Source: Chrysomallon squamiferum (taxonomy: Eukaryota > Mollusca > Gastropoda > Neomphalida > Peltospiridae). From it: a stretch of 64,000 nt of DNA. Below are positions 13,162 to 63,414 of the stretch, in pieces. Under the pieces are notes generated by a model that saw nothing but the letters and a program-made list of their open reading frames with translations, was not told where the DNA came from and searched no databases. The stretch is taken from assembly GCA_012295275.1 (NCBI GenBank), contig CM022672.1:169568-233567 (forward strand), given 5' to 3'. A program made the translations under genes and the position numbers. Positions within the stretch are counted from its first letter, which is position 1. Each line of letters opens with the position of its first letter.

Positions 13162-16100
13162 ATTGGTTCTTTTCTTCAGTTACGATTCCTGCCAATGCTT
13201 TGACAAAACCTAGCCTCTATTTGGAATATACGTCACTGGATAAGATGTACCTTGTTTGTGTCATAAATGATAAAGTCACCTTCAGTGTACAGTACAAAGT
13301 CACATGGTATCAGGAGGATACCAAAACCACTTCAGTGTTATTGAAAAACGGTGAAATGCAAAATAAACAGCTTGTACTGGCTTCCAACTTTACACAGAAA
13401 CAAAGAGTAAGAAATATATATTGTTACTACACAACCATCACTATTACTACTGATACTAATAATACTGATGCTGCTGCTACTACTAGTATTGCTGCTATTA
13501 TAACTAATATTACTGCTGCTACTACCGCTCTACAGCTACCACTACAATTATTACTACTATTACTACAACTACTACTCACCTCAGCAGGTACTATTATTAC
13601 CATAGCTACTGTTAATACTACAGTTACCTCCATTATTGATAAATACTTTATTACTACTGCAACAATTACTACTATTACTACTACTCTACTATTACTATAA
13701 GCTGTAATTATTGCACTACTTCTGTTAGTACTCTGCTGCAATAACAATTTCTTTTACTCTCGCTAAAACAACAGCTACTACAACTATTATTATATTGATA
13801 ATGATAATAACGATTATGGTAATAATGGTGATGATTATGGTTATTGCAATGATTAAACGAAAAAAATAAAATAAAATAAATAAAATAAAATGGCAGATAA
13901 AATACTACTATTACTACTATTATTGCTTTTACTACTCCTCCTCCTACTACTAATAATAATAAATAAATAAATAAATAAATTAAGATTACAAATAAATATT
14001 TTCAGCACGTGTGTAAAGTGCAGGCTTGCTACACGCCGCTCTGTGGAGACCAGCTCAGCGACGTGAAAGTCAGTGACGTGTACAGACCACAGATACGGGT
14101 GAGTTGACGTCGTCGCTAGTGGTGTTCTGTCTGTGTGTTGTAGACATAAAAATGCCTGTGTACTTTATGTATACATTTTATTAAAATATATTTTATGTAT
14201 ATTGTTTGATTTTTATAATTGTGCACTTTCTGTATACATTTTATTATAATGTACTTTATGTATACATTATAATAGTTGTGTACTTTTTATAGACATTTTA
14301 ACAGTAATCTATTTTGTATATACATATTAATAATAATGTATGCTTATTAGTAATAGTGAACTTTGTTCACATACATTAACAATACTCTTGCGAACATTAT
14401 TTATTTAGTAATACAAGTTATTCTTTCTGTGTTACAGCTTGTCTCTGATGAACATCTCAATCTGACAGAGGGAGAATCAGACGTACGGATCAAATTTACT
14501 TTCAATGCACCACCCAATTTACTCTGTCTTATTGCAAACAAAAAGCTCGACTGCAAAGTGTTTGTCGTTGCCATGGTCACTGACAAAGATCCAGTAAAAT
14601 GCAGTTCTCCAGCAGACTGGCTGCTTCCTCAGATTGTGTTTCCTACAGTGAAAGAAATGGGATGCGCAACTCCCATCACAATGGCGAGGTGGCAGACAAC
14701 ACAGAGTGTGAGAGTGAGAGCGAACCAGGACATGTTGATTGATGGTTCCCGCTCATCACTGGTCACTCTCATTACAAAGATAGACGATTACATCTATAGC
14801 GAATCACAGACAAAATCAGAGGTAAACATGACTGCAGCAAATTTTGTGTTCAGAAAATCTGTACCAAGTAAATAGTACAAAAAAAGAAAAGAAAAACGAA
14901 AAGAAAAGAAAAAAAATATGAAAATGAAAAAGAAAATATAAAATACAGAAGTGTAATATAAAATGCTGAGTATTAACGTCCAAGTGGTAATACAGTCATT
15001 TTAATATTTATTTTCTACTTTCAGGTTTCAATAAAAGACAACGATAGGAAAGCTGTCTGTCAGTCTCTTAATGATCCACATTTGAAAACATTCGACAACA
15101 AGTAAGTCTAAATGTTTCAAGTTTGAAAACATTCAATAGAATGTGAGTCTAAATGTTCCACGTTTGAAAATATTCGACAAGTAAATCTAATTGTTCCACG
15201 TTTGAAAACATTCGACAAGCAAGTATAAATATTCCACGTTTGAAAACATTCGACAAGTAAGTATAAATATTCCACGTTTGAAAACATTCGACAAGTAAGT
15301 ATAAATATTCCACGTTTGAAAACATTAAGTTTAGATGAAACAGATACCGTGATTAATTCTAATTTGAAATATAATACGTAATAAGCTCAGTATGGTATTT
15401 GTACAATATACAAAGCTATTTTCGTAATACGTCTTGCACAATATAGATAGATAGATAGATAGATAGATACAGAGATAGATATATAGTCTTGCACAGTATA
15501 TAGTTACAGTGCATAATAGGTTTTATCTTCAGAATTCAATGATATATTTTAGATACTACGACTACCACAGTGAAGGTGAATTCATCTTCTATCGAAACAA
15601 GAAGCTCCCATTTGAGGTAATTAGTTACTGCTTTCTAAGTATGATCTTCCAAAAAACCCAAAACATTTATTGATTTTTATTTTTTTCTCTTTTAATCTAA
15701 TGCTCCTTACGTATAATACATGATATTAATTTTCAAAACATTATAGTACTAAATAAAATTAATACTTGTTCTATCAAGACTGGCTGTACGTAAGTTAGAT
15801 AATATTATATTCATTGTACAAATGATGAAACTAAATTATATTGAACATATTTTTTTTTTTTGCAGGTTAGGACGTTCTACAAAAAGTGTGTTGCAAGTAA
15901 CAATGCGTCGCCGTCGTGTAACTGCGCCGCGGCTGTGAAGTCTGGCGATGACGTCATTGTATTCAAAGGCTGTAAACCAGGCGAGGGAATTTCAGTTGAT
16001 ATGTTCCTGAACAGAGACCTTGAAAATGGCACGAGCGTCTTCAGATATAAAGGAGGCAAGGAGTACAAGGTATTCTTAAAGTTATGATTTTAGTCGTGCC

Positions 16101-19100: not shown

Positions 19101-21535
19101 TTTGATAGCTAGTTTTAAGTAACTGTAAAAGAAGTATTTAGTATTACAATTTGTTTCACAGATGATAAACAATCAGGTAAGCTGTAAGCTTATATTTGAT
19201 TAAAACATCACATTTCTATACTTAGACTGTACACACTAAAACACTGCAGTATACTTAGATACAAATAATATAAAGATTTAATATTATATTAAGATTTACT
19301 AATATTAATAATACTGTATTAAAATATGATATAATATTTTTATGTTGTAGATTATGACATCACCTGATAGTAATAGTTTTTTTTTGTAATATATGAAAAC
19401 AGAGGAGAGTAGTAACATATATATGTTGTAGATTATGACATCATCTGATAGCAATAAAACATTTATATTGTAACATATGAAAGCATAGGAGAGCAATAAA
19501 ATATGTGTATTGTAGAATATGACATCACATCACTGCTGAAGAAGAATGCCAAACACGCACTGAACTGTGTTGCTGCAGTGAACAAAATTGATGAGTTTGA
19601 TTACAATGCGACAGCACAGGCACCAAGTGTAAGTTATTTAGAAAACAATTCTACTGCTTCTGATAATTTAGATATTTATTTCACATTTTTACTGAGCAGT
19701 GAGGAAACAGTCACTGAATACTGAGTTATTCCTTATACAACTCATTTGGAAGGTTTTTGTTGTGTAATAATAAAATTTTATATTGTTTCAAATAAAACTG
19801 AAAAATTGCTGTAACAGTGTTAGTTTAGTGTGTATAAATCTGTAATGTAATTAATACAGTTTTATTTTCAGTCTGAGATAGACTACCCCTCACCATGGAC
19901 AGACAACTCTTCCCGTGCATACTGTACACAGGTTCTAGAAAAATCTCCACTGGCAACCATTTGTAAATCATTCACACAAGTTTTGATTGAAGAGAAAATA
20001 AAGAACTGCATGAATGACATACGTGTACGTGTTTTGTCAAAAATATCTCAACATGATATTTTTATTGAGGTTTTTGTCTAAAATATTTTAGTATGATGTT
20101 TTAATGCGTTTTGTCTAAGATATCTTAGCATGATATTATGTAAGAGTTCTTTTTTCTAAGTATTCCCCAAATTAATTATGTTTATGTTTAACTAAACAAC
20201 AGCAGTCTGTTTAACAATTACTTACATCTGTTATGCTAAACATTTTCTCTAAAACCTAAAATATATTTCTGCATTTATATAAACTCATTATAACTAATAT
20301 AACTGAACGTCATTGTTACTTTAAATAATAGATTTTCAACCTGGGGGTTGCGACCCCCAGATGGGTCACCTGCCTTTTTTTCTGGGGGTCGTGAGATTGT
20401 TCTTGAGTGAGGGAATGTTTTAGCTTTTTTCAACTTGACTTGGAAGGAGAAATAAATAAAAATATATAGATAGTTTTGGGTCCCATCATAGTGAATATAG
20501 ATTCCTTTTGTACTGTCTTTGGTTAATGAAAATATGGTAACCCTAGATATTATTGAATCAAAAATTTTAAAGGGTGTCATCAATCATATTGAGTTTCTCA
20601 CAAAGGGTCATGGTATGAAAAAGGTTGAAAACCAGTGCTTTAAAATAGCATGTTATTACTAAACTGTGCAAAAATATGAGTTACTTAAAATAAAATGTTC
20701 TGTTTTATTTAGCTGACCAATGACAGTCAGTGGTCAAGTGTGCTGGTGGACTCTCTGGAGGAAAGCTGTAAACATGAACTGACATACAACCTCAAATGGC
20801 AGGCAGAAAGGACAGCAGCACTCCAGCAGATCTGTCCTAACTTCTGTAGTAGCAATGGCAGATGTATTAATGGTAAACAATTCACTTTTTGTAACATTTC
20901 TCATTCACATATTTGAACAATCACATACATAATTAAATAAATTTCTGCTTAATTTCTTACAGTTTTCTTCTCTGCAAATTATTTTACAGTAGAAGTATGT
21001 TATTTGTTTCTGCAAATTATTTTACAGTAGAAGTATGTTATTTGTTTTGTGATAGGTGTCTGTGTGTTTTGAACTGTACATCATGTAGTAAGTAGTATGT
21101 TATTTGTTTTGTGACAGGTGTCTGTGTGTTCTGAACCCTACATCATGTAGTAAGTAGTATGTTATTTGTTTTGTGACAGGTGTCTGTGTGTTTTGAACTG
21201 TACGTCAGGTGTCTGTGTGTTTTGAACTGTACGTCATGTAGTAAGTAGTATGTTATTTGTTTTGTGACAGGTGTCTGTGTGTGTTCTGAACCTTACATTG
21301 GTGTTGACTGCTCAGTAAACTCAAAGATTGCACCCACTGTGACCCGTCTGTCATACTCAGGTCTCTGTAATGTACTCACATCCAGTTGTCACACTGTCCA
21401 TGTCTATGGTCACCCTTTTGTCAACAGCAGACAACTCCGATGCTATTATCGACAAATCAATGTAAGTACATATTGCATAATATGATAATATACAATGAAA
21501 TATTTATTTAGAGACTAAATAACAGCAATGAGAAC

Positions 21536-21594
<59 letters not shown>

Positions 21595-21599
21595 GTATG

Positions 21600-21630
<31 letters not shown>

Positions 21631-24600: not shown

Positions 24601-27600
24601 GTCAGGTCTGCCATCTTTCCAAGTACAGGCGTACTGATGTTGGACATTATTATCTCCCCTTTGGCAGCCAGATTGTTTATGAAGAATGGAGCTGTGAAAA
24701 ACGTAAATGTTTTATATATTGTAATTTGACATCTGATTTATGTTCATTGTGCCATATAGTTGTATTTATCTAACAACTTTGACATGTACCTTGCTGTATA
24801 TATGATCAGTGTCCATTGTTGGTATATTGGTATGTAAAGATAGTGGAGTCTACCCACAGTGGAAAACTTTTTAATTAAAGAAAGATATAAGATTCATCTG
24901 TGTTTATTGCATATATCTGATAGTGGATAATTAATTACAGGTTCTGTTTTGATCTTCTAACTAGAGATGAAAGTAAGATCTTCAGAATATGCTGTGAGTT
25001 TATATATTTTATCTGAAACAACTATCCATTAACAAACATAGTTAGTAGATTTGTTTTTTTTTAAAAATCGTGCTAACCTCGTTTAAAATAATGTTTTTAT
25101 CAGAGCGGTGTGCTGGTAAGACAGAGAAATGGGAGGAGCAGTTAGACCGCGTGACTCAGGAGAACAATGTTAAAATAACAGAGGAAGTGTGGACAGCTGA
25201 CATTTGTCAACAACTCTGTGATTCTGATGAAGCCTGCACTTCAGTCAAGTTTCACCCAGCACGAGGCATCTGCATCCTGTCCAATGGATCTGACTCTGAC
25301 TGGATCCAGGCTCCTGGCTGGCAGTATCAGAAACGAATTTGTACAGACGGTATTAAACTGAGCTTTTAGTGAATGTATGCTATGAAATACAATTAATGTT
25401 CCAATAAAATATTTTTTATTATTATTTGATGTAAAATTATACCTTTTTCCCTGTTAGTCACAGTTTAAAAAATGTTCTAATGAAATTTTAAATCTTTCAG
25501 GGTCTCCTGCAGACCGTCATGGACCCAGTGTTGACAAAGCAGTCCTGATCCCAACATTCCAAGGACCAGGAAATGACAGTTTTAGATGTCACTTCACACA
25601 TCTTCAAGACAACAAACGAAATGTTCGGTATGATGTGTTGTGGAGTGTTGATGGTGTCTGGATGACAGAGAACACTGATGAAGTTCTGTCACAAACATAT
25701 TCTAACACACTGAAAGACAACTCAACAGTAAGTGTCAATAAATCAGTACCTGTCATACACATAATGTGTTTGCAGGTTCAGTGTGTGTAACATAATGTGT
25801 TTGTGTTTGCAGCTTCTGCATGTGTATAACAATGTGTTTGTGTTTGCAGGTTCAGTGTGTGTAACATAATGTGTTTGTGTTTGCAGGTTCAGTGTGTGTA
25901 ACAATGTCTTTGTGTTGCAGGTCCAGTGTGTTTCTGTTTGCAGGTTCAGTGTGTATAACAATGTGTTTGTATTTGCAGGTTCAGTGTGTGTAATATAATG
26001 TGTTTGTGTTTGCAGGTTCAGTGTGTATAACAATGTGTTTATATTTGCAGGTTCAGTATGTGTAATATAATGTGTTTGTGTTTGCAGGTTCAGTGTGTAT
26101 AACAATGTGTTTATATTTGCAGGTTCAGTGTGTGTAATATAATGTGTTTGTGTTTGTGTGTAATATAATGTGTTTGTGTTTGTGTGTAATATAATCTGTT
26201 TGTGTTTGTGTGTAATATAATGTGTTTGTGTTTGCAGGTGTGTAATATAATGTGTTTGTGTTTGCAGGTTCAGTGTGCTGTCAGTGTTTGTTATGTAGAC
26301 GACTGTGAGAACACAAGGGGGCTGCTGGCCATGTCAGAGCTGTACAAGGCTCAGATAAAGGTAAAAACTGATGTTTTAACATTTACTGTCCAGTAATTTT
26401 AAGAAAAGTAAAGTGTTCCAGTTAGAAAAATGATATAATTGACATGGACATGACAACTTCTGTCTTTCAGATAGAAAACTTTGATAATTCAGGCAGTCTC
26501 ACTTTAAGAGAAGGGGAAGATGGTATTAATATGGCTGTGCAAGCTACAGCTCCTCCATACATCTTGTGTCGAGACATGGGACTGTCTGATTCAGACATTT
26601 GTACACTGGAGTTAGCTGTGAGTGTGTCTGGTAACAACAGTGAATTGAGATGCCCTGATGGTAACAGCATACCACAGGTGTCTGTCAGGATTACAGAGAA
26701 GGGTGAGGAGATGAAGCTGTGTAAAGTGGCAATCACTTCAGACAGGTGGGACACACCGTTTAACATCAACATCAGAGCAACCATCGACAACAAGTACGAC
26801 ACAGATCAAACATGGCATTTGACTCTAACAAGAAAACACTTTGTCAACTCAACTCTGGAGAAAAGTATTGTAACAGTCAAGTCTGAGGTGTTTATACTAC
26901 TCATTTTACTAGCATTACTACTACTCATTTCACTAGTATTACTACTACTCAGTATTACTATTACTCATTTCACTGATATTACTACTACTCATTTCTCTGG
27001 TAGTATTACTACTACTCATTTCACTGATATTACTACTACTCATTTCTCTGGTAGTATTACTACTACTCATTTCACTGGTATTACTACTACTCATTTCACT
27101 GGTATTACTACTACTCATTTCTCTGATATTACTACTACTCATTTCACCGGTATTATACTACTCATTTCACTGGTATTACTACTACTCATTTCACTGGTAC
27201 TATACTACTCATTTCACTGGTAGTATTACTACTACTCATTTCACTGTTAGTATTACTACTAATTTCACAGGTATTACTACTACTACTCATTTCACTGGTA
27301 TTATACTACTAATTTCACTGGTATTACTACTACTCATTTCACTGGTATTATACTACTCATTTCACTGGTATTATACTACTCATTTCACTGGTATTATACT
27401 ACTCATTTCACTGGTATTACTACTACTCATTTCACTGGTAGCATTACTACTACTCATTTCACTGTTAGTATTACTACTAATTTCACTGGTAGTATTACTA
27501 CTACTCATTTCACTGGTATTATACTACTCATTTCACTGGTATTACTACTACTCATTTCACTGGTACTATACTACTCATTTCACTGGTATTACTACTACTC

Positions 27601-30600
27601 ATTTCACTGGTATTATACTACTCATTTCACTGGTATTATACTACTCATTTCACTGGTATTACTACTACTCATTTCACTGGTATTACTACTACTCATTTCT
27701 CTGGTAGTATTACTACTACTCATTTCACTGGTATTACTACTACTCATTTCACTGGTAGCATTACTACTCATTTCACTGGTAGCATTACTACTACTCATTT
27801 CACTGGTAGTATTACTACTAATTTCACTGGTATTACTACTACTCATTTCACTGGTATTATTACTACTCATTTCACTGGTAGTATTACTACTACTCATTTC
27901 ACTGGTAGTATTACTACTACTCATTTCACTGGTATTATACTACTCATTTCACTGGTATTACTACTACTCATTTCACTGGTACTATACTACTCATTTCACT
28001 GGTAGCATTACTACTACTCATTTCACTGTTAGTATTACTACTAATTTCACTGGTAGTATTACTACTCATTTCACTGGTAGTATTACTACTAATTTCACTG
28101 TTAGTATTACTACTCATTTCTCTGGTAGTATTACTACTACTCATTTCACTGGTAGCATTACTACTACTCATTTCACTGTTAGTATTACTACTAATTTCAC
28201 TGGTATTACTACTACTCATTTCACTGTTAGTATTACTACTAATTTCACTGGTAGTATTACTACTCATTTCTCTGGTAGTATTACTACTACTCATTTCACT
28301 GGTAGTATTACTACTACTCATTTCACTGGTAGTATTACTACTCATTTCACTGGTATTACTACTACTCATTTCACTGGTAGTATTACTACTAATTTCACTG
28401 GTAGTATTACTACTAATTTCACTGGTATTACTACTACTAATTTCACTGTTAGTATTACTACTAATTTCACTGGTAGTATTACTACTCATTTCACTGGTAG
28501 TATTACTACTACTAATTTCACTGGTAGTATTACTACTAATTTCACTGTTAGTATTACTACTACTAATTTCACTGGTAGTATTACTACTACTAATTTCACT
28601 GGTAGTATTTACTACTAATTTCACTGTTAGTATTACTACTACTCATTTCACTGGTATTATTACTACTCATTTCACTGGTATTACTACTACTCATTTCACT
28701 GGTATTACTACTACTCATTTTACTAGTAAAATGATTCAAAGTTAATAGATGTCTATAAAAAACACAATACATATTGCTGTTTACTACAGTTCTGTTCTTC
28801 ATTTTCTTCACTCTTAAACCATATAAGCACTACTGCTCTGGGAGATGCAGGAAATAGTTCATGTCTGGTCTTTAAAGGTACTTTAAAAATCCATCGATTT
28901 TTGTTTTGGAATCATGTATTATTAGATTTGTAGTACACAAACATTAGACATGTAAATCTTTCTTAAAATTGTTATCAAAGAACACTGATAAATGTTTATT
29001 TTAACATTAATTTTGTTTAGTTAACTTTCACAGATTTGTTTTCTATATTCAGCTAACCATTGTCAACATGGATAGACCATCCATCTGTATGTCTATCAAT
29101 GATCCACATATGACAACATTTGATGGAACGTAAGTAACATTCTTACTGTATATGATAATAAATTATATTATTTTTTAAGTAGTAATACAGTTTTACTTAC
29201 AATAACAATATAGTTTTGTATATAGTAATAATAAAGTTTTATATATAGTAATAAAACAGTTTTATATATATATTATTAATACAGTTTTATATTTAGCAAT
29301 AATATATTTTTATATGCAGTAATAATACAGTTTTATATATAGTAACAATACCAGTTTTACATGCAGTAATAATACAGTTTTACATCCAATAATGATACAG
29401 TTTAATATGTAGTAATAATACAATTTATTATATAGTATTAATACAGTGGTTTTACTTATAGTAACATACAGTTTTTTTATTGGTTATGTTTCTGTGTATA
29501 TTGTTTATATGTTTATATGACTGTGTTATTTATTTGCTTTTATGTTGGTTAGATACTATCACAACTACTATGAGGGAGAATTCATTATGTATCAACACAA
29601 AACTTTGCCCTATGAGGTGAGAATTTATTTATTTATTTATTTTTTTTATTGTTTATAAAAATGTTATTGTTACAGGTCATTGAAAACAGTCATCCATTAA
29701 TAATAATATTATGTTAATTTTATGTTCTCTTATTCTTCTAGGTGAGAACATTCTACCGCAGCTGTTCAGGTCGAGTTTCCTGTAACTGTGCTGTTGCAGC
29801 ACGTGCTGGTGATGATGTTGTCATTATTGACAAGTGTGGACCTTTTAATAAAGAAGGATTTTACCCCATCACGGTAAAACTGTTTCGAAATGGAATTCTC
29901 ACTCCTGGCTTCCGAGTATTTAGTCAGTTTGAAGGAATTGAGTATCAGGTAATTACAACATTGCTCAGTTATCATTCTTCATTCATTAGTTATCACAACT
30001 GATATGTCCATTTATATAATAAATTTTACTATGATAATATGTTGATAATGTAGGTTTTATAAATATCAGATAATTATGTTGATGGTATGTGCATTTATAA
30101 ATAATGGTCAATATTTTGGTAGTATTGTGTTTATAGCTTTCATGTAATATACTGATGTATTTGTGTTTGTAAATATAAGATATAATGTTTTTGTTTTTTA
30201 TAATTACAATATGATAATCTTTAGATAATGTTCCCTTCTGGTATGATGGTATATGTGAGCAGAAGTGCTATACGAGGATACAACTTTCTTAATGTGTGGC
30301 TGACCCCCTCAGCCCTGGATTTCAATAACACAGAAGGTAAATAATGTTACCACTCATTTTTCTTTCTTCCTCTTAACACTCTAATTTTTAACACCAACAC
30401 ACTGTTTTTGGAGTGCGCAAGAGCTATTTGAATTTATTTACAATACACAAAAAGATGTGCATCTATAAGTTATATTTAATAAAAAAATATATATTTTGCT
30501 TATCAAGAAACATTCTACAGATAGAGATAATAACTATTCCAGTACTGGATTAGTTTTTTGGTTTAAATCTTTTGATCACATTTAAATACTTGCCAGGTCT

Positions 30601-39600: not shown

Positions 39601-40272
39601 CATGTGCTGTGGCTGTGAAGTCAGGTGATGATGTCATCATGATTGACAGGTGTAGACTTGTTTTAACATCCAATAAAAAAATTCCTCTGATGGTTACACT
39701 GTTCAAGAAAGGGGAACTAACTGCAGGTACTCGTGTGAGAAGAATTGCTGATGGATTGAAATACATGGTTAGTTTGTCAGCTGGTTTCAGTTTTAGTAGA
39801 ATTTTACCTCTATTAAATTATCCAAATTGTAAAATGTTTACATCAGTATATATGCTAAATAGTACTTATTGTAATATGTTTACGTCCATCCATATATTAA
39901 ATAATTTGTATTATAAAATGATTACATCAGTGATAGTTATATGTTGATGTACAAACTGTTGTACTTTATTTAGATTGATTATTTGGTATTAAATGTAACG
40001 ACAATTTATGTTGATGTATTTTATTTAGATATATTTGCCAACTGGCACTGTTGTCATGGTGAAGGTTGGTCATGGTTCATTGCCTAACATCCTGAATGTG
40101 TGGATTAAACCTTCAAGTGCTGATTACAATCAAACACAAGGTAAAATATTTTATTAAATAAGCAAAAATATCAGTGTAAATAAAAATAGTTTATTAAATA
40201 AGTAAAAATATCAGTGTAAATAAAAATAGTTGATTAAATAAGCAAGAATATCAGTGTAAATAAATGCCAGAG

Positions 40273-40308
<36 letters not shown>

Positions 40309-43300: not shown

Positions 43301-46300
43301 GGTTTCTTTCTTGTTATACACTGTTAACACAAAATCATGAACTGAATATTAAGATAGTAGTGCAACAAACATTAAATTAGTGAATATGTTTCATTCTACA
43401 GCTGGAAAGAAGGAAGCTATCAAGTTGTTGGTGAGGAGAAAATAGTAGCAGCTGAATTCTTCAGCTTCAACCAGGTGATCTGCAAACTGCCTAAACCAGG
43501 CAGCTACATCATGTCTGTCACCAACAACAACGTCATCTTCAGTGAAAATGTCACATTCACAGCATACAGTCCAAGCTGTCATCAGTGTACAAAGTCAGGC
43601 CTTTGTAAACTTACGGTAAATGTAAAATATGTAAACAGTGTGCAAAGTCAGGCCTTTGTAAACTTACAGTAAATGTAAAATATGTAAACGGTGTGCAAAG
43701 TCAGGCCTTTGTAAACTTACGGCAAATGTAAAATATGTAAACAGTGTGCAAAGTCAGGCCTTTGTAAACTTACGGTAAATGTAAAATATGTAAACGGTGT
43801 GCAAAGTCAGGCCTTTGTAAACTTACGGTAAATGTAAAATATGTAAACAGTGTGCAAAGTCAGGCCTTTGTAAACTTATGGTAAATGTAAAATATGTAAA
43901 CAGTGTGCAAAGTCAGGCTTCTAAAGATTTATGGCAAGTCTAAAAAAAGTAAAAACTTAGGCATTTATAATCTTGAAGTTTGCCCTATATAAACTTACAG
44001 CAAATGTATTGATATAAGTAAACATTGTACACTCAGATGTTTACAGATGTTTAGACTTATACTAAATACATCAGTGTCGACTGTAGTTCTAATCATTTGT
44101 ATGTAAATGTATAATAAATGTATCAATCTATGTAAACAGTGTATTAATCATCGGTATTAAAATGAAAAATGTGTTATTTATTGCAGTCTGACAGGTGTTT
44201 CATAGACAATAAATGTTATCACTCTGGTGACAAAGCCAAACACAACGCCTCTCTCGTTTGTGAGCCACACGAAAATTACACAGAGTGGAGCATCTTTAAA
44301 GGTTGTTTTATTATTTGTTTATCTGTGAGACTTTTGTTGAATAAAATTACCTTGAATCCACAGTCTTTTTAACCATGAGGAAATGTTAGTTTTACTTTGT
44401 TGAATTCTTTTTAAAAAAGAGAGCAAAGTATAATAATAACAAAGAAGTTATAACAGTTATTCAATATAACAGTGGATGCAGTGTTTATAAAGAAATCACT
44501 AAACATGTCCATTCACTTCTGTGGGTTAATTTTTTCAGCATATCCATATCTCCGAGGTGAGCCAAAGTTGTCTACCCGCTATGATGAAACAAAGAATGAA
44601 TTATTCTTTCGGTGCGAGTTCGATGTCTTCCAGCGTGATGATGTCACATACAAAATGGTGTTGTATCACAATGACACTAAGATCACAGATCAAGTCCTTG
44701 GCAACTCTGTGAACATGACCGAATACAGCATCAACCTGGTGACAGGAATAGCTTATGGCTCTACAGTATGTACTATAACTAAGTCTATTAACTATTATGT
44801 TTTATTTTATTTTTCTCTTGCTCCTCATTTTTGCAGAAAGAAAGTGAGCTGTTTTCTGGTGTGTGTAGCATTCCATACAAGATCAATTTTTGTATGTTAT
44901 TACTTAATGAAAGTATTTGCTGCAGTTCATCTCTGAATAAGTAGTGATAATTTACTTGAATGTCATATGTTAGACAAAAGAATAAATTTAGCATACAGTG
45001 ACAGTTTTTAGGTAGGAGTGTATATTTATCATTTTTTGTATTTCCTGTATATCTATGTGTCTGTGCATGCATGCATTCATGTCTGTGTATATCTGTTTTT
45101 TTGTGTGTTTATACATGTGTATGTGTGTTTATTTAGTATATGTTTGTGTATGTGTGTATATGTGTGTATATGTGTGTAAATATATATATTTATGTATGTA
45201 TGTGTGTATGTATGTATGTATGAATTGTGTATGTGTGTGTGTGTTTGTATTTATGTATATGTTTTATCATTTTAGGTGAGGTGTGGAATATGGGCATGTT
45301 TCACTTCCAGTTGTTCCAACACAAACAGTCCACCAAAGAAAAGTGAAATATTTACTGTAGAGCTGAAGGTAAAGAGCTAGTTATGTGAATTAACCATCCA
45401 CACAACATCCATTAACTCACCTAACCTGTGCTCTGAGTAACCAGAGGTTCACCTAGCTACTACTCAACCAGTATTTTATATAAGAACTGACTATGGAAAG
45501 CTGCATAAAATGATGTACAAATAAGCACAGATTAAATACAGATTGGATAGACAAAAACATTTTATGGTCTGTAATCATTTCAGATATCTCACTTTTACAT
45601 GCATCTCTCTTTGTTACCAAAACAGTATAACACTATAATCACACATATCTCACTTTGATATCATGCTGCTACATTATTCTCTAACAATGGTTTCACTGTG
45701 TAAAATGTGTCCATGTTTCAGGTGTCTGGTGACATCACTGTAGTGGAAGGAGGACTGCCTGGTCAGTTTGCAGTTGAGTTGACAGTGCCACCAAACTACC
45801 TGTGTACTGACAACAGTGATGACTGCCATGTGCAGGCTGGGATTGTTCTGGATGTTGAAAAAGAACACAAATGTTCCACTTCAGATCTGATTCACTACCA
45901 GTCAGTGTTTGTCTCCACAGCAACAGAGCCCAGCAGTGCTGGTTGCTCTTTGAGTTTCACTTCATGGCCTCAGACTGTCACAATGCCAGTCCAGGCAGTC
46001 AGTGACATGTTGGTAGATGGTGATCAAATTCGCACTGCTCACTTTTCTGTCTCAGTCACCATGGATACCAAAGTACAGTTCAGCTCAGTGGTTGCATCAA
46101 GGAAAGTATGTATTTTGTGGTTATATTTTTTTGTTGTTCTTTGACTTTTGACATTATTGTGTTGTATAATAAATTTTCACTTTTTGTTCACTTTGTACTA
46201 AAACATAATTCAGAGAACTGCAGTGTTTTTAAGATAACAATTCAGAACTGTGTGATTGCAGGTCACAGTGAAAGATTCAGACCACACTTCACTCTGCAAC

Positions 46301-49300
46301 TCTGTTAATGATCCTCATATGAAAACGTTTGATGGAAGGTAAGACATTTCAGATCTGGTCATTACTGGTGTAAGAAGCATAGAGAAAATGTTTAATTTCA
46401 CTTTTGAAATAATTGAAGATTAAAAGCTACTGGCACTTGAAGTTTGGAAAGAGTCAATCCTGACAATTATATTAGCTTTAGCATTTATTACTTTATACTT
46501 AATACATGTTTATGTTAAATAGATAATACTAAAAAAATAATACTAAGATAAATATCTCTTTATATCTGATTGTAGTTAAATATGTGTACATATCTGTTTG
46601 CATCTAATCATAGTTAATAAATAGTTGTATTGTCTGTTTATAACTAATTATATTATAAATATTTGTAAATTAGTTTATAAATTGGTGTGTTGTTTCAGGA
46701 AATATAACAACTTTTTAGAAGGAGAGTTTGTTCTGTACAGACACAAGACTTTGCCTTATGAGGTGAGGTGTCATTTATAGAAATATCATTATTCTTATTT
46801 ATCATATTTTAATAGTTCATACATGATTTATTTATCATATTTCAGTACTTAACTAGAGATTTATTATTTATCATGTTATAGTGATTTACTTGTAATATTA
46901 CAGCAGTTTACTAGTGATTTATTCATTATTGTAGTAGTGATTTAACACCTACAGAGCTTTATTGTGATGGTCTGTGTGTTTAGGTAAGGTCATTCTACCG
47001 CTCCTGCAATGGCCGTGCAGCATGTAACTGTGCTGTCACTGTCAAGTCTGGAGATGACGTCATTCTGATAGACAGATGTGGAGCTGCCATGGGACCATCA
47101 ACTAGGAAGACAAGAATCTCAGTGAAAATTTTCAAAAATGGTGAACTCACAAAAAATACCAGAATTCTGCAGTTTTCTGGAGGAAAGAGATATGAGGTAA
47201 GATTTTACTTTTATTTTATTATTAGTTTAGTTCACTTTATCTTTTTATTTTATTATATCTTTAGATTCTTCTTCTTATTATTATTGTTATTTTTTTTTAA
47301 ATGCAACAGTTTAGAAATTACAGATTTCTCATTCTGGAAATAATATTAGAAATGACACAAATGAAGTTAATAGAAATTGATTTATTAGTTGAAGAGGTTT
47401 GTTATAAACAGACATATGTCAGTGAATGGCATTTCTTATACACATTTAATTTTTTAAGAAGCCTGTGAATATCATTTAATTTTTTAAGAAGCCTGTGAAT
47501 ATCATTTAATTCATGCAGAAATATGTCAGTGACAATTCATAAGAAAATCTAATAGTGATACTTCATTCATGAAGAAATAAAATAGAGAAATGTCATAACT
47601 TGCATTGTAGGTTCACCTGCCAACTGGAACATATGTCATAGTGAAGACAGGAGTGAGGAGAACAGCAAACTTCCTCAACGTGTGGGTCAAATCATCAGCT
47701 GCAGACTACAAACAAACTGAAGGTTGTAATCATATCATATTTTAATTAGCTTACTGCTGTGTGTTTTGTTTGGATATTAGACTACATGTTATTCATTATG
47801 TAGTATATCATTGTGCAGAATCATTGTAATATTCAAATATATATTTGAAGCAGTTATGAACCTGATTAATAATTCATTTATTAAATATGCACATGTATAT
47901 TATAAATTAAATACAAACATTAAATTTAAACTATATAACTGTATCCACATTGTGTTTCAAACAGGCCTTTGTGGAAGTTTGGACAACAACAAGAGAAATG
48001 ATTTTTTCATAAAAGACAATCTGGCACAGGATGTGAACACCTTCTCTCTGTACTGGAGGTAAACAATATTTGGTAAACTGATTGTTTAAACTGACGCTGG
48101 TAAACATTACACTCCTTCTTATAATACATACATTGTTACATTGTTTTACACTGCAGAATATTATTGTGATAAACTCTACTCTGTTGTTTCAGTTGACAGT
48201 GATAAACACTACATTCTTGTTTGTGACAGTAAACTAATCTGGTAAATATTACACTCTTTCTGTAAACTGAATAAAGAATATCACTTTTCATCATTTCTTT
48301 GTTTAACAAAAATCGTTTATTTCCACAGAATTACTAAAGAATATTATTAACACTAGAACATACCAGTTGTTTATGATTAATATTTTTGCAAATCTAAGTT
48401 CTGCCTATATTGTAGATTTCTTTGTTTTGCAGAAAGTCACTACTCTGGTCTGTGTGTGACAGAAGAAGTTTCAACATCAAATGCAAAGTTTTTACATGAT
48501 TAAGATTTTTGTCAGTAAGTTCTGCCTATTGTAGAGTGATGTCAACTTGATGTTATCAGATGTCCTCAAAACACACAGTCCAGGAAACAGAACATCAGGT
48601 TTAACCCATGAAAATAGTTTTGTTTAATGTTATTAGAGGTATAAAGATATAACAAAATATATGTTTGATGTTATCAGATGTCCTCAAGACACACAGTCCA
48701 AGAAATTCACATCAGGTAAAACTTCACATGAAAATAGTTTGTTTAATGTTATTACAGGTAAAAATATATATTGAAATATCTGTTTGTTAAGGTTTGTTTA
48801 ATAATTTTTAAATGTATGTTTGTTATTACAGGTAAAGATTTGTTTAATATTAAAATGTATATTTCTTATCACAGGTAAAAAGATATATTAAATTATTATT
48901 GTATGTTTGTTATTACAGGTAAAGGATTGTTTAATATTAAATTGTATGTTTGATTTTACAGGTGAAGATTACACAGAACATTTTTTGCAGCAGGCAGTGA
49001 GTTCTTGTAATGAGAAGACAGTTTTCCAGTATGACTCTGACTACAGATCTGAGGTACTCGGTTTCAGTTTTACTCTTGTTAATACCTGGTTCTTTTCTTA
49101 ATGATAAATATTTAGAGTTTATTATTACAGTTGTTTAACACGTGTTTTTCTGTTTCCAGATTTTTACATGGCCTACAAAAACACTTGGTTTCACTGAGCA
49201 GAATGCAACTGAATACTGCCGCAACTACATAACAGGAACAAAGATTGGAACTCAGTGCATGAAATATTTGAGTCTGCAACTTGAGATCAGTATTGCATCC

Positions 49301-51077
49301 TGCGTTTCTGACATCCAGGTAAAGCACTGCCATTGATTATTTTTTTTAAACTGTGCGTTTAGAAATAGCTGTTCAGTTTATTATTTTAAAACACTGTGTA
49401 CAGTTACAAGTTGTTTTGTCACTCAAACCTGCTAATCAGCATCTTAATAAGTGCACATTTGAACATAGTGTTTGCATTTTCTAGAATCCTGATTTTGGAC
49501 TTTGTAGGTAATGGGTTTATGTTATGGATACAGATTTTAAAAAAATGTAATATTTATGTTCTTTACAAACAGGCATTTATAATGTATTTATGTTATATCA
49601 AGGACAGCTGTAGATAATATGTTTATGTTGTGTTACAAGGTATGAACAGCTGTAGGTAATGTGGTTATATTGTGTTACAGATCATGGACAACTTGGACTG
49701 GGCAGAAGAAGCCCTCCAGGGATTCATCCTGCAATGTCTGTCTCTCTTCATGTTTGATGTGAAGATGTGGATTGAGGTTAATGGCCAGATTAAACCAAAT
49801 TTCAACATAATAGATCTTGTGTGTGTCAATGACTGCAGTCAGCACGGCAGTTGTTGTTCAGCAGGTCAGTAACAGAGGTAGATCAGAACAACAGGTGATA
49901 TATGATATGGAATCTTCTACTGGATTTCTATTTGCAGTTTTATTAAAAGTCTCACATGAGCTTTTATAGTACTGGGCAATAAGATTATATCATAATTAGC
50001 AGAGGTTTAGTGTTTGACAAACCATATTGTTTCTACTAAATGATATTATATTTTATTAAGATGATGATTTGTATTTTTTGTTTTTCTGATATAGGCATGT
50101 GTAGCTGTGACAATGGTTTTGCTGGTCCTGATTGTTCTGTGGATCTCAGCATACCTCCACGTATAGACTCTGTAGCTAAACCTCGCTGTGACAGGAAAAC
50201 ATCTGACTGTACTTCAGTGGTTATCTATGGAGGCAGCTTTGTCCAGCTGGACACTCTTGTCTGTAGGCTGACCACAGCACTGGTAAGTTTTAAATATCTG
50301 CATGTATCTTTTTTAAATATCTGCATATATCTGTCTGTATTTTGTTTTATATAAATATTAAAATTTTGTCTGTTATTTTAATGTGTCATTTAATCTGTGT
50401 TATCTGTTATATATAAATATCAGAAATCTACTTGAATCTGTATGTTCTTAATCAGTAAATTGTACTTGGGTATTTTATTTCAGTACACGACTTCAGCCTA
50501 CATCAAGAGCAGCATTCAGACAACTGTGGTGGCTAAATTTGTATCATTTGAAGAAATTGTGTGTCCTGTCTCAGAGGGCAGCTACTACATTGAGATCTCC
50601 ATAGACGGCAAAGTCTTCAGCAGTGACATTCTCTTTCAAGTGATTGACTCAACATGTATGACCTGCGAGAATAATACATGTACTGTTAATGTAAGTCACC
50701 AAAAATATAATGTCATAGTCTGATCATAAGTTATCCCAGTCAATATTTACATTACATATTTGGTTAAAGTCTTTTTTAATGCTTAACAGTTAAATTATTA
50801 TTATTAAATGTCTAGTTAAGTAATAATTATAATTAATAGTTAAACTGAGATTATTTATTAAATGTTTAATAATTAAATAATAATAATTATCATTAAACAG
50901 GAAGGTTCATGTTTCATTGAGTGTTTCATTGAGTCTGATAAAAGTGTTACAGGAACCTTGGAGAGCAAACCCTGATAACAATACTCTGATGTGTGAGCCA
51001 AGCAGGAACCAAACAGCATGGACCAGAGCAAATGGTACTGTTTTAAACCTAATCAGTGCAGTGCTCTGCCTGCAAAA

Positions 51078-51135
<58 letters not shown>

Positions 51136-54100: not shown

Positions 54101-57100
54101 TAAGTAAGAAATAATCTAGTTGACATATACTTTGTAAACAGTTATATTTAATAACATTTGATGCAGTAAACAAGAACTATTGGTTGTTACTGTTGTTGTT
54201 TTTTGTTTTTGATATATTAGTAGAAACAGTACTACGAATGTCAATTATTAGTTAATAATGGTAATGACAATGAAGAAAATTATGGTGAAAAATTAAAACT
54301 TAACTTCACGTGATATGCACAGAGATGACAAATAATAAAATAACATGTGTTATATAAATATATCATTCATGTCTGTTGTTTTTTTGTTTGTTTTTTATGT
54401 TGTTTTTTTCTCCAGATCCACACATTCTATCGACCATGCAATGGAAGGGCAGCTTGTAATTGTGCTGTTGCTGTGCAGGTTGATGATGATGTTGTTGTAG
54501 TTGATAGATGTGGACCATCAATGGGCAAGTCAAACATTCAGACACCTATTTCAGTACAGATGTACGTAACAGGAGAGTTGACAGCTGGATTTCGAGTGAT
54601 CAGAATGAATGGAGGAAAGAAATATGACGTGAGTTTTCTGCATCTCTCTGTAGCACAATTTATTTTAAACAAATTTTTTATTACAGTTTTAGGTTTTAAG
54701 AAAAATATCTATACATGATTAATATAAGCTTAGTCTTAGTGAATGCTGTTGTTACAGGTGATGTTGCCCAGTGGGTCAGTGTTGACAGTGTCCGTTGGTC
54801 GAGGTCTAACTAAAGAGTTTCTCAATGTCTGGTTTAGAGCATCAGCTGTTGACTTTGGCCACACAGAAGGTATTGATGTCATATCAGTTTTTTTATTTGT
54901 TGTTAGGTCTGTTTAGATTATTGGAATAACTAACTAAATTAAAACTGTGGTTAGGTCTGTGTAGATTATTGGAGACACTAATTTAATACAAGATGTTGTT
55001 AGGAATGTGTAGATTTTTTGAGTCACTAATTGAATTAAAGTGTTGTTAGTTCTGTGTAGATTTTTTCATTCACTAACTAAATTATAACTGTTGTTAGGTC
55101 TGTGTGGAACATTTGATGGGAACAAGAACAATGACTTAAAAACAAGAGATGGAGACTTAGTTACTGGAGGTGTTTACCCAAACAAGTTCTCAGTTAGCTG
55201 GAGGTAAACATTTTAAATACTTAAATATTTTAAGTACTCACACAGAATAAACACTTTATGTACTCATTTAAGTGGAGGTAAAGATTTTAAATATTTGTAT
55301 AGATGGAGTAAAAATTTGAAATTCTCACACAGATGGAGTTAAACATTTTAAAATAGTTAGCTGGAGATAAGGAAATGCCAACATGCAAAAGTGAGTTGTC
55401 ATAATGTAAATAGAACAGTACATATTAATCTAATTGTTTAACAGAGTGAGTAAAGAGGAATCGTTGTACAGAGGTGTCTGTGGTGCAGCTACTACAACTG
55501 AAGGTACAACTGTCAGCCAGACTTTCTGTTCCTGTGACAACAAAGAAAACATTGACTGTAGCCATGGCTATGCCTTCATGTGTCAAGACAGTTTGAAGAA
55601 AATCAGACACGGTATATTATATGTTATAAATAGCTTTGTAAACCCAAGTACATCATAGTCTGTGTTTTCACTACATCAAAACAAATATCAGTAGCTGAAA
55701 CAACAGATTCACAGTAAACAATGGAAGTATTTCACATCAAAATACTGGTTTCATAGTAGGCTATGGAAGTGTTTGACATCAAAATGCTGGACTCACAGTA
55801 AAAAATATTGAGTCATATTTTATAGCTCACTAAATGATTTTACTACAGGTACACCCAACCCACTCACATTTATTATATTTATTTGTGTTTACAGGTAAAG
55901 ATATTACAGATGAACTAATGCAGACTGCAACTGTTGGCTCTAGTCAGTGTGTTGTATATGAGTATGATGTCAACTACACTCCCCAGGTACACCAATATCA
56001 TTTCTTCAGTAAATATGAGTTTTACCCTTTGTTGTTAATGCATGAGTAATAGTTATTTATGTTAATGTTAGTGTAAAATATAATGATAATATAACAGTTA
56101 TTTACATGTTGGTCTAATGTTTAATATAAGTGGTAAGTTAATTTAAATGTTAGTGTAAAAGTAAAGGTAAATATTAGTAACAGTTAATGTAAATTTAGTA
56201 TAATTGTAATTGAAGGAATACACCTGGCCGACACGAAAAGGCTGGACTCTGGAGAAGGCGAAACAGTACTGTACTGAGTACATACAGAAACACGAGTCTG
56301 GTCGTGTCTGTACCAGCAAAGTTCAAAACATTGGCCTTGACCTTGTTATCAAAGCTTGTGTGGAGGACATTCAGGTAAATACCAAATTTAACAATTACTT
56401 TATTCTCTGTTTCTCTATATCTATCACCCTCTCTCTCTCTCACTCTCTGTCTCTGTCTCTCTTTCTAATGACAAATCTATCTGCGTATCTGTCTCTCTGT
56501 CTGTCTGTCTCTGTCATTTTACATGTATAGTGTGTGTACATGTGAGTAGTGTGTGTGTGTGTTTGTGTTGTGTTTCACTTCTATGTCTATATAATTCAGA
56601 TTATGGATGACACACACTATGCTACTACTGCCCTGGAGAGTGTTAAAGAACAGTGTGTGTTTGAAGTGGCAATGAACAGTCAGTTCTGGATTAAATCTTT
56701 AACTGGTCTCTACACTATTGACTTCACCATCATTGGAAGTGTTTGTCCAGAGGAATGCAATGAGCATGGGACATGTAGAGGAGGTAAGCATCAATATTTT
56801 GTTTGTTTGTGTCTCACACTGAGCCATTTGTCAAAGATTTACAAGTGTACAGAATTTGTTTTTGTGATCTCAGTTACAGGTGTGTAATTAAGTCAAAATA
56901 TTAAAGACATATAATTAATTAATATATGTGTGTGTGATTATGTATATAATTAGTTATGTAATTAATTAATAAGTTTTATGTGTTTAAAAAATATAATTAG
57001 CAATATGTTCAGGTGTGTATGATTAAAGCTGTATATTTATATAGATACAGGTGGCTGTATTTATAGGAGTCTATGATTAAATCAATATATTTACAGGTCT

Positions 57101-58622
57101 GTGTAATTAAATCAGTGTATTTACATGTGTATATAAGTCAGTGTATTTATAAGTGTGTGTTTATAAAACAATGAATTTATATGTTGTACATAAAACAATG
57201 AATTTACAGGTCTGTGTAATTAAATCTATGTATTTACAAGTGTATATAAATTAATGTACTAACAGGTGTGTGCGACTGTCATGAGGGCTATACAGGAGAA
57301 GATTGTTCAGTAGATTTGTCAGCTCCCCCCACCATTTACGGACCCTCTCATGGTGGATTGTGTAATATGGGGGCAGGTTCTTGTACACAGAAAATCTACA
57401 TCTACGGAGAAATTTTCTACAACTCCCAGACTCTGACCTGTTACTTTAAGTCCATCACAGTAAGTGTTTGAGTCAAGACAGCAAATAAATGTTAGATAGC
57501 TTATTCTGTACAGATATCTGTATCAATATCTGTATATCAATTAATCTAAGTATTTCTATATCTACATCTTAGTTCAGTATTAAAATTATTTTAAATGCTC
57601 TGTGACTTTTTAATGTCTTGATATAGAATTAAACATCTGTGCTTGTCATATGCAAAAGAAATGTTTATTAAATCTAATCATTGTGTATTTCAAAATTTTT
57701 AAGATTGAGGCCTCCACATTGGTAATATCAGAAACAGTGACAGAGTCTTCTGCTGTATTCATCAACTTCAACACTGTCATCTGTAACCTGCCGACCATCA
57801 GCAGCTATGCAGTCAGCATCAGCAATGTTAAAAACATTGTCAGCAACTACACCATCTACCTGGTTTACAACAGTAAATGTGTGACCTGCAATAGAGAAAA
57901 ATGCACTTTTAAGGTGATCTCGTTTCTTCTGTTTGAGTAAGAACTAAGAATCCTAAGAATCCTAAGAATCCTGTGTTCTGTATTCTGTTTAACAAAGCTA
58001 TAATGTAATAGTTAAATGTAACAAAGCTGTTATCTCATGGTTCTGTGTAACAATGCTATGATGTAACAGAACTATGTAATAGTGCTGTGATCAGTAAGAC
58101 TTATTATAAGTTACGTTTGATAAAACACTTTTATATAGCCCTTATATGTATTCACAATTGCAGCCTGATACTTGCTTTATTGATGGGATGTGCTACAAAA
58201 TAAAAGAGAAGAAACCAGGAGATGATAACAAAATGTGTTTGCCATCAGTCAATGTCACATCCTGGTCTCAGATAAAAGGTAATACATAGATTTTAATTCA
58301 CAATAATATACTTAGTTTCTGTAACTGGTAGTTTGACATATATATATATATAACAACAATAATGTGGTGGGCCATAAAGCTTCACAAAATGTAAATACTG
58401 GAAAAATAATTGATATGGTTTCTGCATATTACAAATAATTTTTAACTGTGATAAAATATGTTGCTATTTTATATAAACTGAAATGCAGATTATACAGTAA
58501 AACACTGACAAGCATTTAGTTACCATTTTGCAATACAGATAAAACTTTTTCAAGTGGTAAAATGTTGTGGATGGCAATCTCAAATGGTCAAATTATTGGG
58601 ACAGCAGTTGCTGCCATATCAT

Positions 58623-58657
<35 letters not shown>

Positions 58658-61600
58658 GTAAAAACATTTTACTTAAGTTTTGTTAAATATGGCATATTTC
58701 ATCTGTTTATAGAATATCCAGTCCTTAAGGAGCCAAAAATTTCCACAAAGGAGATGAGTGAGTCTCCTTATTTTGTTGTGATGTGTCAGTTTGAGCGAGT
58801 GGAGGATGAAGATATTCGCTACACAGTTGAGTGGTTTGCAGGGGAGGAGAAAGTGACTGATCGAGGACCATTTGTAGATGAAACAAAGAGTTTTCTGAAC
58901 ACTGAAATGTTAAAAAACTTTACTGTTGGCCAGAAGGTGAATAAAACATATTAATCATAATATTTTTTTATTTTTTTTGAGAAACAAAAATAATTTCATT
59001 AAATGATATATAAATAAAAGGTATATGTAGATATGTGTTCTGACAATAGTATAAATTAAAATACTATTTATTTAAACAGATTCAGTGTAGTGTGATTGGT
59101 TGCTACAGAACAAACTGTACAACAACAACATCACCTCCAGTCAGGAGCAGATACCTCAGTGCCAAAATACAGGCAAGTTTATAGTCAGTAAAATGTAGTG
59201 CTCAGTTTATTCACAATATCTTCAAAACAGCTTGTAACATTATGTCATGTCTAATAGTAGTGACAGTTATTTCCTTAGCAGAAGAAAAATAAAATTCTTA
59301 CAGAATTACTGTCAGAATTAATCTGTAACCTAATTAGTAAAAACAAAGTGGACATATTTTATCTGATAAATAAATGTACTGTAAATATATTATATATATT
59401 TTAGTGATTTGTTGCAAATTTTATACATTTATATATGTCACAGGTAAAAAACACAGCACTGAAGATAAAGGAAGGCAGTGGCATTGTTCATGTTGCTATC
59501 AAGCTGAATTTCCCACCTGGTTTCTTCTGTCACAATCTGTCAGTCTGGGATGAGTGTTCCTTGAAACTGACTTTGGCTGTCACCGAAACTGAAACTCAGC
59601 TGAAATGTCAAGGTCAGCCTGTTGTGCAGGCTGTTATTGGATATATGCCAAAAGGAGATCATCCAAAATGTGGACTTGTGATTACAAAGACAAACTGGAA
59701 GTCAGAGTTGATGGTCAGTGTGAAAGCAAAAACTGACTCTCCACTTGTTGATGGTGACAGAAATGTTGAAATGAGGTTAACAACATCTGTCATGATGTCA
59801 GGTGCTGGGGTGCTGGTCAGTACAGCTCAGATAATTGATGTCAAGGTTTGTCATCGTCTTCACAAATCAGTAATATAAATGACTGAAATTGAAATTTAGC
59901 CTTGTGGCCAAGTTGACACTTTGTTACATGTATCTAATGTTTGACAGTGTGAGCATCCTGACACTTTGTTACATGTATCTAATGTTTGACAGTGTAAGCA
60001 TCCTGACAGTTTGTTACATGTATCTAATGTTTGACAGTGTAAGCATCCTGACAGTTTGTTACGTGTATCTAATGTTTGACAGTGTAAGCATCCTGACAGT
60101 TTGTTACATGTATCTAATGTTTGACAGTGTAAGCATCCTGACAGTTTGTTACATGTATCTAATGTTTGACAGTGTGAGCATCCTGACAGTTTGTTACATG
60201 TATCTAATGTTTGACAGTGTGAGCATCCTGACACTTTGTTACATGTATCTAATGTTTGACAGTGTAAGCATCCTGACAGTTTGTTACATGTATCTAATGT
60301 TTGACAGTGTGAGCATCCTGACAGTTTGTTACATTTATCTAGATGTTTGACAGTGTAAACATGCTGACACTTTGTTACATTTATCTAGATATTTGAAAGT
60401 GTAAACATTCTGACAGTTTGTTACATTTATCTAGAGGTTTGACAACGTAAATATGCTGACACTTTGTTACCTTTATCTAGATGTTTGAAAGTGGAAACAT
60501 TCTGACACTTTGTTACATTTATCTAGATGTTTGACAGTGTAAACATGCTGACAGTTTGTTGCAAGTATCTAATGTTATTCATGGTGTTTTCAGATTGTTG
60601 TTGAAGATGCTGACAGGTCAGCAACATGCAAGTCTATGAACGATCCTCACATCACAACATTTGATGGAAAGTAAGTGTTTCTACAAGTTTATCACACATT
60701 GTTATTATATAATAAATCTGGGTTTTTTTTCTTCTTACACACCCATACTGTACATGCAAATGACAGATGATTTCTTATTCCTTTCAGAAAATACAACAAT
60801 TTCTATGAAGGAGAATTTATCCTTTATAAGCACACCACTAAACCATACGAAGTAAGTAAATATATTAAATTATGATACAGAGAGCCAAATATAATTTATA
60901 AGTGAATTTTTTTAATCTATTTAAGATTTTACTTTGTTAGAAGAACAAATTTAATATACTTTCATATATAGTAATATTGAAATATATTTCTAGTATGATA
61001 TTAAATTTATAGCTGCTCTTGACTATTTATTCCCAGATAGAATAAGAAATTTGTTTTGTGTACAGGTGAGATCATTCTACCGAAGTTGTCGTAAGAAAGC
61101 TGCCTGTAACTGTGCTGTGGCTGTCAGATCGGGTGATGATGTCATAGTAATTGACAGATGTGCAGAACAGGACAGTGAGCCAGACACACAGATGGTCATA
61201 CGGACATACATAACTGGCGAGTTGACACCAGGAACTCGTATTGTCAGATATGTTGGAGGAAGAGAATATAGGGTAAACAATTCAACCTCAGTCTGTCACA
61301 GTGTTCTAACAATTCAACCTCAGTTTGTCACAGTGTTCTAACAATTCAACCTCAGTTTGTCACAGTGTTCTTATACTTCAACCTCAGTTTGTCACAGTGT
61401 TCTTATACTTCAACCTCAATTTGTCACAAGTGTATTTACCTTCTGGTACATTCATGGTTGTTGTGAAGTCTAATGTATATTTTAGGTGTATTTACCTACT
61501 GGTACATACATGGTTGTGAAGTACAATGTATATTGCAGGTGTATTTACCTACTGGTACATACATGTTTGTGAAGTACAATGTATATTGCAGGTGTATTTA

Positions 61601-63414: not shown

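What the first reader, a model, noticed from the sequence alone, without database searches (positions are those of the whole stretch)
15078..61862. Many introns carry tandem repeats whose unit contains the splice site itself
In at least ten introns the repeat unit includes the donor or acceptor plus adjacent exon bases: 15102 (donor), 19325, 20990, 25770, 32440, 34225 (acceptors), 43591 (donor), 48750, 54880 (acceptors), 55196 (donor), 57091 and 61486 (acceptors). Other arrays start exactly at a donor (26888, 31315, 40880, 61273). Ordinary intronic minisatellites need not sit on exon borders, so this looks like a recurrent mechanism of boundary-anchored expansion producing arrays of decoy splice sites.
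Basis: partly seen in the sequence, partly recalled or inferred. Interest (0 to 1): 0.9.

Follow-up and report, generated by a model that had tools for sequence, protein, structure and literature searches.

The report
Intron repeats that copy splice sites
A giant animal gene has short introns full of tandem repeats, some of which carry copies of the splice site; this is real and resembles the "mirages" known from amphioxus, and the number of repeats lying across exon edges is what random placement would give.

Summary
The arrays are real. The gene is a modular VWD/EGF (VWDE-like) gene of an animal. An exon model, checked against a collinear paralogue (116 of 120 paired exons keep both splice dinucleotides), gives 93 tandem arrays and 152 introns. 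Seventeen arrays include at least 5 exon bases; random placement predicts 15.7 (pooled) or 20.6 (own intron). So arrays over borders are not in excess. Arrays that stop within 20 intron bases of a border are: 26 of 92 against 11.9 (pooled) or 15.2 (own); this excess is absent from the small set of lineage-derived arrays (4 of 22, 4 of 29). Decoy sites are intact in 79 of 90 copies, as strong as real sites, neither eroded nor preferentially kept; 1 of 82 would keep an open frame. Best explanation: tandem duplications landing at random, tolerated even across splice borders, then turning over, with exons limiting array growth (inferred). Closest known kind: amphioxus mirages. One array lies on the donor of an intron found in 1 of 11 homologous exons: candidate intron gain.

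The parts
15075..15326 (+). tandem array, unit 38, contains donor after exon 15025-15101 plus 27 exon bases; array at the same border in the paralogue (36 exon bases)
19341..19528 (+). array, unit 84, contains acceptor of exon 19516-19628 plus 13 exon bases; one copy counted in the paralogue
21032..21291 (+). array, unit 62, contains acceptor of exon 21271-21461 plus 21 exon bases; same overlap in the paralogue
25765..26277 (+). array, unit about 36-37, up to 15 copies aligned, contains acceptor of exon 26268-26360 plus about 10 exon bases (by eye); paralogue array covers 10
32430..32579 (+). array, unit 35, contains acceptor of exon 32569-32759 plus 11 exon bases; same overlap in the paralogue
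34198..35320 (+). array, unit 86, 12 copies against 1 counted in the paralogue; reaches acceptor of exon 35317-35431 plus 4 exon bases (marginal)
43583..43918 (+). array, unit 53, contains donor after exon 43409-43615 plus 33 exon bases; 6 copies against 1 counted in the paralogue, which however shows further diverged partial copies when read
48802..48970 (+). array, unit 43, contains acceptor of exon 48962-49053 plus 9 exon bases; same overlap in the paralogue
54898..55116 (+). array, unit 48, contains acceptor of exon 55098-55203 plus 19 exon bases; no paralogue partner for these exons
55195..55370 (+). diverged copies of the donor region after exon 55098-55203 (by eye only; limits approximate)
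   Evidence: TRF rows 55205-55238 and 55273-55352
57078..57269 (+). degenerate array, unit about 26, reaching acceptor of exon 57266-57459 (4 exon bases; marginal)
61430..61786 (+). array, unit 53, contains acceptor of exon 61751-61862 plus 36 exon bases; same overlap in the paralogue
26895..28728 (+). 24-bp array (about 75 copies by TRF) starting 7 bases inside the intron after exon 26471-26887; 9 copies counted in the paralogue
61276..61433 (+). 32-bp array starting 3 bases inside the intron after exon 61066-61272
14438..63414 (+). window part of the VWDE-like gene: tandem modules of about 15 exons (E1-E15, some with two PAN exons)

Best explanation
Tandem duplications of short segments (mean unit 32 bp) arise at effectively random positions in this minisatellite-rich gene. 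A duplication wholly inside an exon would damage the protein and is lost. One inside an intron, or straddling a splice border, leaves an intact exon edge and is tolerated. Copy number then turns over inside the intron, giving arrays of extra splice sites. Because introns are short (median 278 bp), about one array in five or six covers a border by chance. Older arrays tend to stop just inside the border, probably because they spread by further rounds of duplication until the exon stops them. Splicing must use the exon-proximal site, since nearly all decoys would break the frame. Shown here: array anatomy, positional counts, copy-number differences between paralogues, intact decoys. Inferred: neutrality, the duplication steps, exons as a growth barrier, correct splicing.
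For: TRF-free: border 14-mers recur in 28 of 304 cases, collapsed-intron interior 14-mers in 693 of 5031, mid-exon 14-mers in 0 of 304. Borders supported by a paralogue keeping both dinucleotides in 116 of 120 paired exons. Border arrays with one copy counted in the other locus: window gene 19341, 40005, 43583, 85288; paralogue 83728 (14 against 1) and 89650. Arrays cover 34.2% of intronic but 1.3% of exonic bases. Near-border edges are not in excess among derived arrays. Decoys keep signal dinucleotides at 0.939 identity against 0.914 elsewhere, P=0.26; mean site score 5.46 against 5.52. Of 82 decoys with similar context, 1 is frame-keeping and stop-free.
Against: Excess of arrays stopping within 20 intron bases of a border: 26 of 92 against 11.9 (P=0.0001) or 15.2 (P=0.003); spanning and abutting together 45 of 92 against 29.9 (P=0.0007) or 38.8 (P=0.09). 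In kinesin loci 8 of 42 arrays end within 20 bases of an acceptor (1.4 expected) and 0 start within 20 bases of a donor (1.4). Spanning with uncollapsed intron lengths: P=0.03, 0.06, 0.02 for k=3, 5, 8. Two of the 'one copy' ancestral states (43583, 85288) show further diverged copies in the paralogue when read. The gene carries several times more array DNA than most kinesin loci and the four other C8 pieces, which placement does not explain. The kinesin sample is small; 10 of 20 loci have an unbroken phase chain.
Confidence: 0.7

Rival explanations
1. Boundary-anchored expansion: exon borders promote tandem duplication or array growth next to them, for example through structure at splice sites during transcription.
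For: 26 of 92 arrays stop within 20 intron bases of a border against 11.9 or 15.2 expected; similar in the paralogue, 21 of 83 against 8.8 or 11.2; starts at intron offsets 5-9: 7 against 1.5; kinesin loci, acceptor side 8 of 42 against 1.4.
Against: Arrays over borders are at the null in each set tested; borders are repeated less often than intron interiors; derived arrays show no near-border excess; kinesin donor side 0 against 1.4.
Confidence: 0.2
2. The decoy arrays are functional: they regulate splicing or provide alternative exon ends.
For: 79 of 90 decoys intact and as strong as the real site; several border arrays are shared by both paralogues.
Against: Signal dinucleotides are no better kept than the rest of the unit (P=0.26); 1 of 82 decoys keeps an open frame; 13 of the 18 units are not multiples of three; copy numbers differ between paralogues.
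Confidence: 0.05
3. Assembly artefact: arrays are collapsed or expanded by the assembler.
For: Raw reads are not available here; exact copy numbers may be wrong.
Against: The same borders carry arrays in a separate locus 20 Mb away with the same exon overlap (21/21, 11/11, 9/9, 36/36, 24/24 bases) and about 94% median exon identity.
Confidence: 0.03

Closest known systems
'Mirages' of amphioxus (Adh3, globins BflGb6/BflGb9, TnC, PGBD5)
   Same: Minisatellite-like tandem duplications of exon-intron borders, donor or acceptor side, copies often carrying AG/GT signals, variable copy number; reported not to disturb splicing (PMC3087553 and PMC3902484, passages read).
   Different: Those are single genes of a cephalochordate, units 10-72 bp (Adh3) and 150-160 bp (globins), as given in the passages. 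Here 17 such arrays lie in 88 kb of one VWDE-like gene whose best protein hit is a gastropod, with a placement test.
Intron gain by tandem genomic duplication (Rogers model; Hellsten et al. 2011; Gao and Lynch 2009)
   Same: Tandem duplication carrying splice signals (review PMC3443670, passages read; the primary papers not read).
   Different: Most arrays here sit in introns shared by several modules and create no new intron; only the split exon at 68000-68523, outside the window, is a candidate gain.
Human introns derived from tandem arrays (Zhuo et al. 2007)
   Same: Tandem arrays containing splice sites. Only the title was seen, in the reference list of PMC3087553; content recalled.
   Different: There the arrays themselves are proposed to become introns (recalled); here they lie within existing introns.

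Membership tests
Mirage (border-spanning minisatellite) | tandem direct repeats, units of tens to about 160 bp | tested here: met
   units 15-84 bp in the 17 border arrays; up to 15 copies aligned at 25765-26277
Mirage (border-spanning minisatellite) | unit spans an exon-intron border and includes exon bases | tested here: met
   17 of 93 arrays with at least 5 exon bases
Mirage (border-spanning minisatellite) | copy-number instability | tested here: met
   between paralogues only, counted as 6 against 1, 12 against 1, 14 against 1 and others; between alleles not testable
Mirage (border-spanning minisatellite) | somatic instability (reported at Adh3) | not testable with these tools
   no reads
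Mirage (border-spanning minisatellite) | normal mRNA despite decoys | not testable with these tools
   no RNA; only inferred from frames
Intron gain by tandem duplication (exon 68000-68523) | intron present in one homologue and absent from the others | tested here: met
   split in 1 of 11 E1 exons of this gene, and in the paralogue's copy of the same module
Intron gain by tandem duplication (exon 68000-68523) | intron sequence derived from duplicated exon carrying AGGT | tested here: inconclusive
   23-25 bp repeats in the intron resemble the last 19 exon bases and the donor, but the array could postdate the intron

The most novel reading that the evidence does not exclude
The spliceosome of this animal tells apart up to about a dozen near-identical, equally strong splice sites by position alone, always taking the exon-proximal one, so decoy arrays are selectively invisible; and such an array has occasionally given birth to a new intron, as at the split E1 exon of one module in both paralogues.
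Probability: 0.35. Interest if true: 0.6.

Novelty: new member of a known kind. Interest (0 to 1): 0.35.

Why it matters
It extends border-spanning minisatellites from amphioxus to a gene whose best relatives are molluscan, and it suggests with counts that duplications creating strong decoy splice sites are tolerated about as often as purely intronic ones. These introns are natural competition assays between nearly identical splice sites and could be read directly with RNA sequencing; one may record how an intron is born.

Tried and rejected
First gene-finder run predicted too many exons; replaced by runs with a higher exon cost and a homology bonus. In one search I put 24 predicted exons on a drop list (weak ones without exon-type support, splice-site decoys inside arrays, fragments; six lie beyond 102 kb), set three borders by hand, and added five exons of 630-672 bp from an earlier run; exon E8 at 48962-49053 was added. 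Exon E7 of the module near 48.1-48.9 kb was not found, so that stretch counts as one intron. Two paralogue exon starts were set by hand. Two of 95 merged arrays were dropped as microsatellite-like; one of the 93 lies inside an exon and is absent from the own-intron and edge tests (92 arrays).

Rejected: functional decoys and assembly artefact (see rivals). Polypyrimidine richness as the cause of the acceptor-side edges was looked at: 1 of 12 such arrays is over 60% T. Species identification by mitochondrial COX1 found nothing. PF00094 (VWD) could not be searched. The original mirage paper (PMC117041) is not held.

Full report
Setting. The gene from about 14.4 kb rightwards is built of tandem modules of about 15 exons. 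One module translates to VWD plus EGF-like domains; PAN domains were found in two exons tested. Its best protein hit is an uncharacterized Physella acuta protein (32% identity, 97% of the query); oyster proteins, Lineus, Capitella and amphioxus VWDE are among the 25 hits. I call it VWDE-like; the source is probably a mollusc (inference).

Exon model. I wrote a small gene finder (codon, splice-site and module-homology scores), edited by exon-type homology (E8 at 48962-49053 added). A second copy of the locus lies at about C8:20.77-20.86 Mb on the minus strand and aligns collinearly, introns included. Of 153 exons, 120 have a partner there; 116 of those keep both AG and GT, and median exon identity is 93.6%. 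Of the 33 without partner, 18 lie between 49160 and 57459 and 15 beyond 93.7 kb, near the end of the compared stretch.

Observation. TRF with merging gives 95 arrays of period 12 or more in 14.4-102 kb, 93 after dropping two microsatellite-like ones, and 152 introns of mean 394 and median 278 bp. Mean unit is 32 bp (2974/93). The claim that four arrays start exactly at a donor is loose: 7, 10, 57 and 3 bases inside the intron.

Arrays over borders. A duplicated unit of length u landing at random with at least k exon bases has 2(u-k) border placements per intron. With each array kept to its own intron, 17 of 92 against 20.6. With today's uncollapsed lengths the expectation is 11.5 and P=0.06, or P=0.03 at k=3 and 0.02 at k=8; I prefer the collapsed version because the arrays themselves lengthened the introns. 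Adding the by-eye array at 25765 makes 18 and changes nothing. In the paralogue 12 of 83 against 12.1; among arrays with at most one copy counted in the other locus, 4 of 22 against 4.3 and 2 of 29 against 4.6. Without TRF, 14-mers across borders recur in the adjacent intron for 12 of 152 donors and 16 of 152 acceptors, mid-exon 14-mers in 0 of 304, collapsed-intron interior 14-mers in 693 of 5031.

Arrays against borders. Spanning and abutting together: 45 of 92 against 29.9 (P=0.0007) or 38.8 (P=0.09). In finer bins, starts at offsets 5-9 are 7 against 1.5, starts at 40-59 are 12 against 5.9, and starts in the last ten exon bases 1 against 3.0. In arrays counted as derived (at most one copy in the other locus) the excess is absent: 4 of 22 against 2.8-2.9 and 4 of 29 against 3.0-3.1, with low power. 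I read this as older arrays spreading by further duplications until an exon stops them; trimming of diverged edges by TRF may add to it. A real preference for growth next to borders is not excluded.

Other genes. From 137 kinesin-motor matches (PF00225) I took 20 loci with closely spaced matches (DNA). In 68 introns, 42 array-intron overlaps include 2 border-spanning ones against 2.8 expected, both at donors. None of the 42 starts within 20 intron bases of a donor (1.4 expected), but 8 end within 20 bases of an acceptor (1.4 expected). Border arrays are thus not confined to this gene. Array density: eight paralogue pieces L003-L010 have 14.6-26.9% of bases in arrays, five pieces downstream of the window 14.2-24.2%, flanking pieces L011-L013 5.7%, 6.5% and 21.1%, four other C8 pieces at round coordinates 3.0-10.9% (two contain N), and the 18 kinesin loci of 3,600 bases or more 0-36.1%, median about 4%. 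I have no explanation for the high density.

History and turnover. Five border arrays have the same exon overlap in both loci (21, 11, 9, 36 and 24 bases) and a sixth differs (27 and 36), so these probably predate the split. For others one copy is counted in the sister locus: window gene 43583 (6 against 1), 85288 (6 against 1), 19341 (2 against 1), 34198 (12 against 1), 40005 (3 against 1); paralogue 83728 (14 against 1) and 89650 (2 against 1). On reading, the sister sequences at 43583 and 85288 show further diverged partial copies, so 'one copy' depends on the alignment threshold.

Decoys. For 18 border arrays, 90 aligned intronic copies cover the splice signal; 79 keep it. Their mean score is close to that of the real sites (5.46 and 5.52). 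Signal identity is 0.939 (169 of 180 bases) against 0.914 (3636 of 3976) elsewhere in the unit; random dinucleotides do as well in 26% of draws. Of 82 decoys with similar context in 17 arrays, one would be frame-keeping and free of stops. So decoys are neither detectably purged nor kept, and correct splicing must pick the exon-proximal site; that is inference, as no RNA was available.

What is known. [quoted passage not shown] PMC3902484 (one passage) adds PGBD5 and TnC. PMC3443670 (passages) reviews intron gain by tandem genomic duplication. No report of mirages in molluscs stood out in the capped listings of my searches, which cover only the open library. The arrays here meet the mirage features that could be tested.

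Candidate intron gain. Exon E1 is one piece in 10 of the 11 modules examined (including the one at 107044) and split in the module at 68000-68523; the paralogue's copy of that module is split at the same point. The intron (131 bp here, 303 bp there) contains 23-25 bp repeats resembling the last 19 exon bases and the donor. This fits the mirage-to-intron model, but the order of events is not shown.

Verdict. Real anatomy; the number of arrays over splice borders is as expected by chance; arrays resting against borders are in moderate excess, best explained by growth up to the exon. It is a dense set of mirage-like arrays in a VWDE-like gene.

Noticed in passing
68224-68354 in window coordinates (beyond the window; in L014): Intron splitting exon E1 in one module only (and in its paralogue), with 23-25 bp repeats spanning its donor: candidate intron gain.
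   Followed up: partly
window 21949-24045: Long intron with a dispersed element: ORFs at 23411-23860 match others near 103.0-103.6 kb, and 22078-23087 matches a different intron of the paralogue.
   Followed up: no
window 49160-57459: Eighteen consecutive exons, about one module, have no partner in the paralogue: module gain or loss, perhaps by unequal exchange.
   Followed up: partly
63143-63414, 95995-96135, 97088-97308 (window coordinates; the last two beyond the window): Neighbouring exons fused (E8+E9; E2+E3; E5+E6), the last two at the summed usual lengths (77+64 and 112+109), as after precise intron loss.
   Followed up: no
kinesin loci L023-L042: Eight of 42 arrays end within 20 bases of an acceptor (1.4 expected) while none starts within 20 bases of a donor: an acceptor-side pattern not explained here.
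   Followed up: partly
gene and paralogue, L003-L010 and L014-L018: Array coverage about 14-27%, several times the median of kinesin loci and the four other C8 pieces.
   Followed up: partly
   Followed up: no
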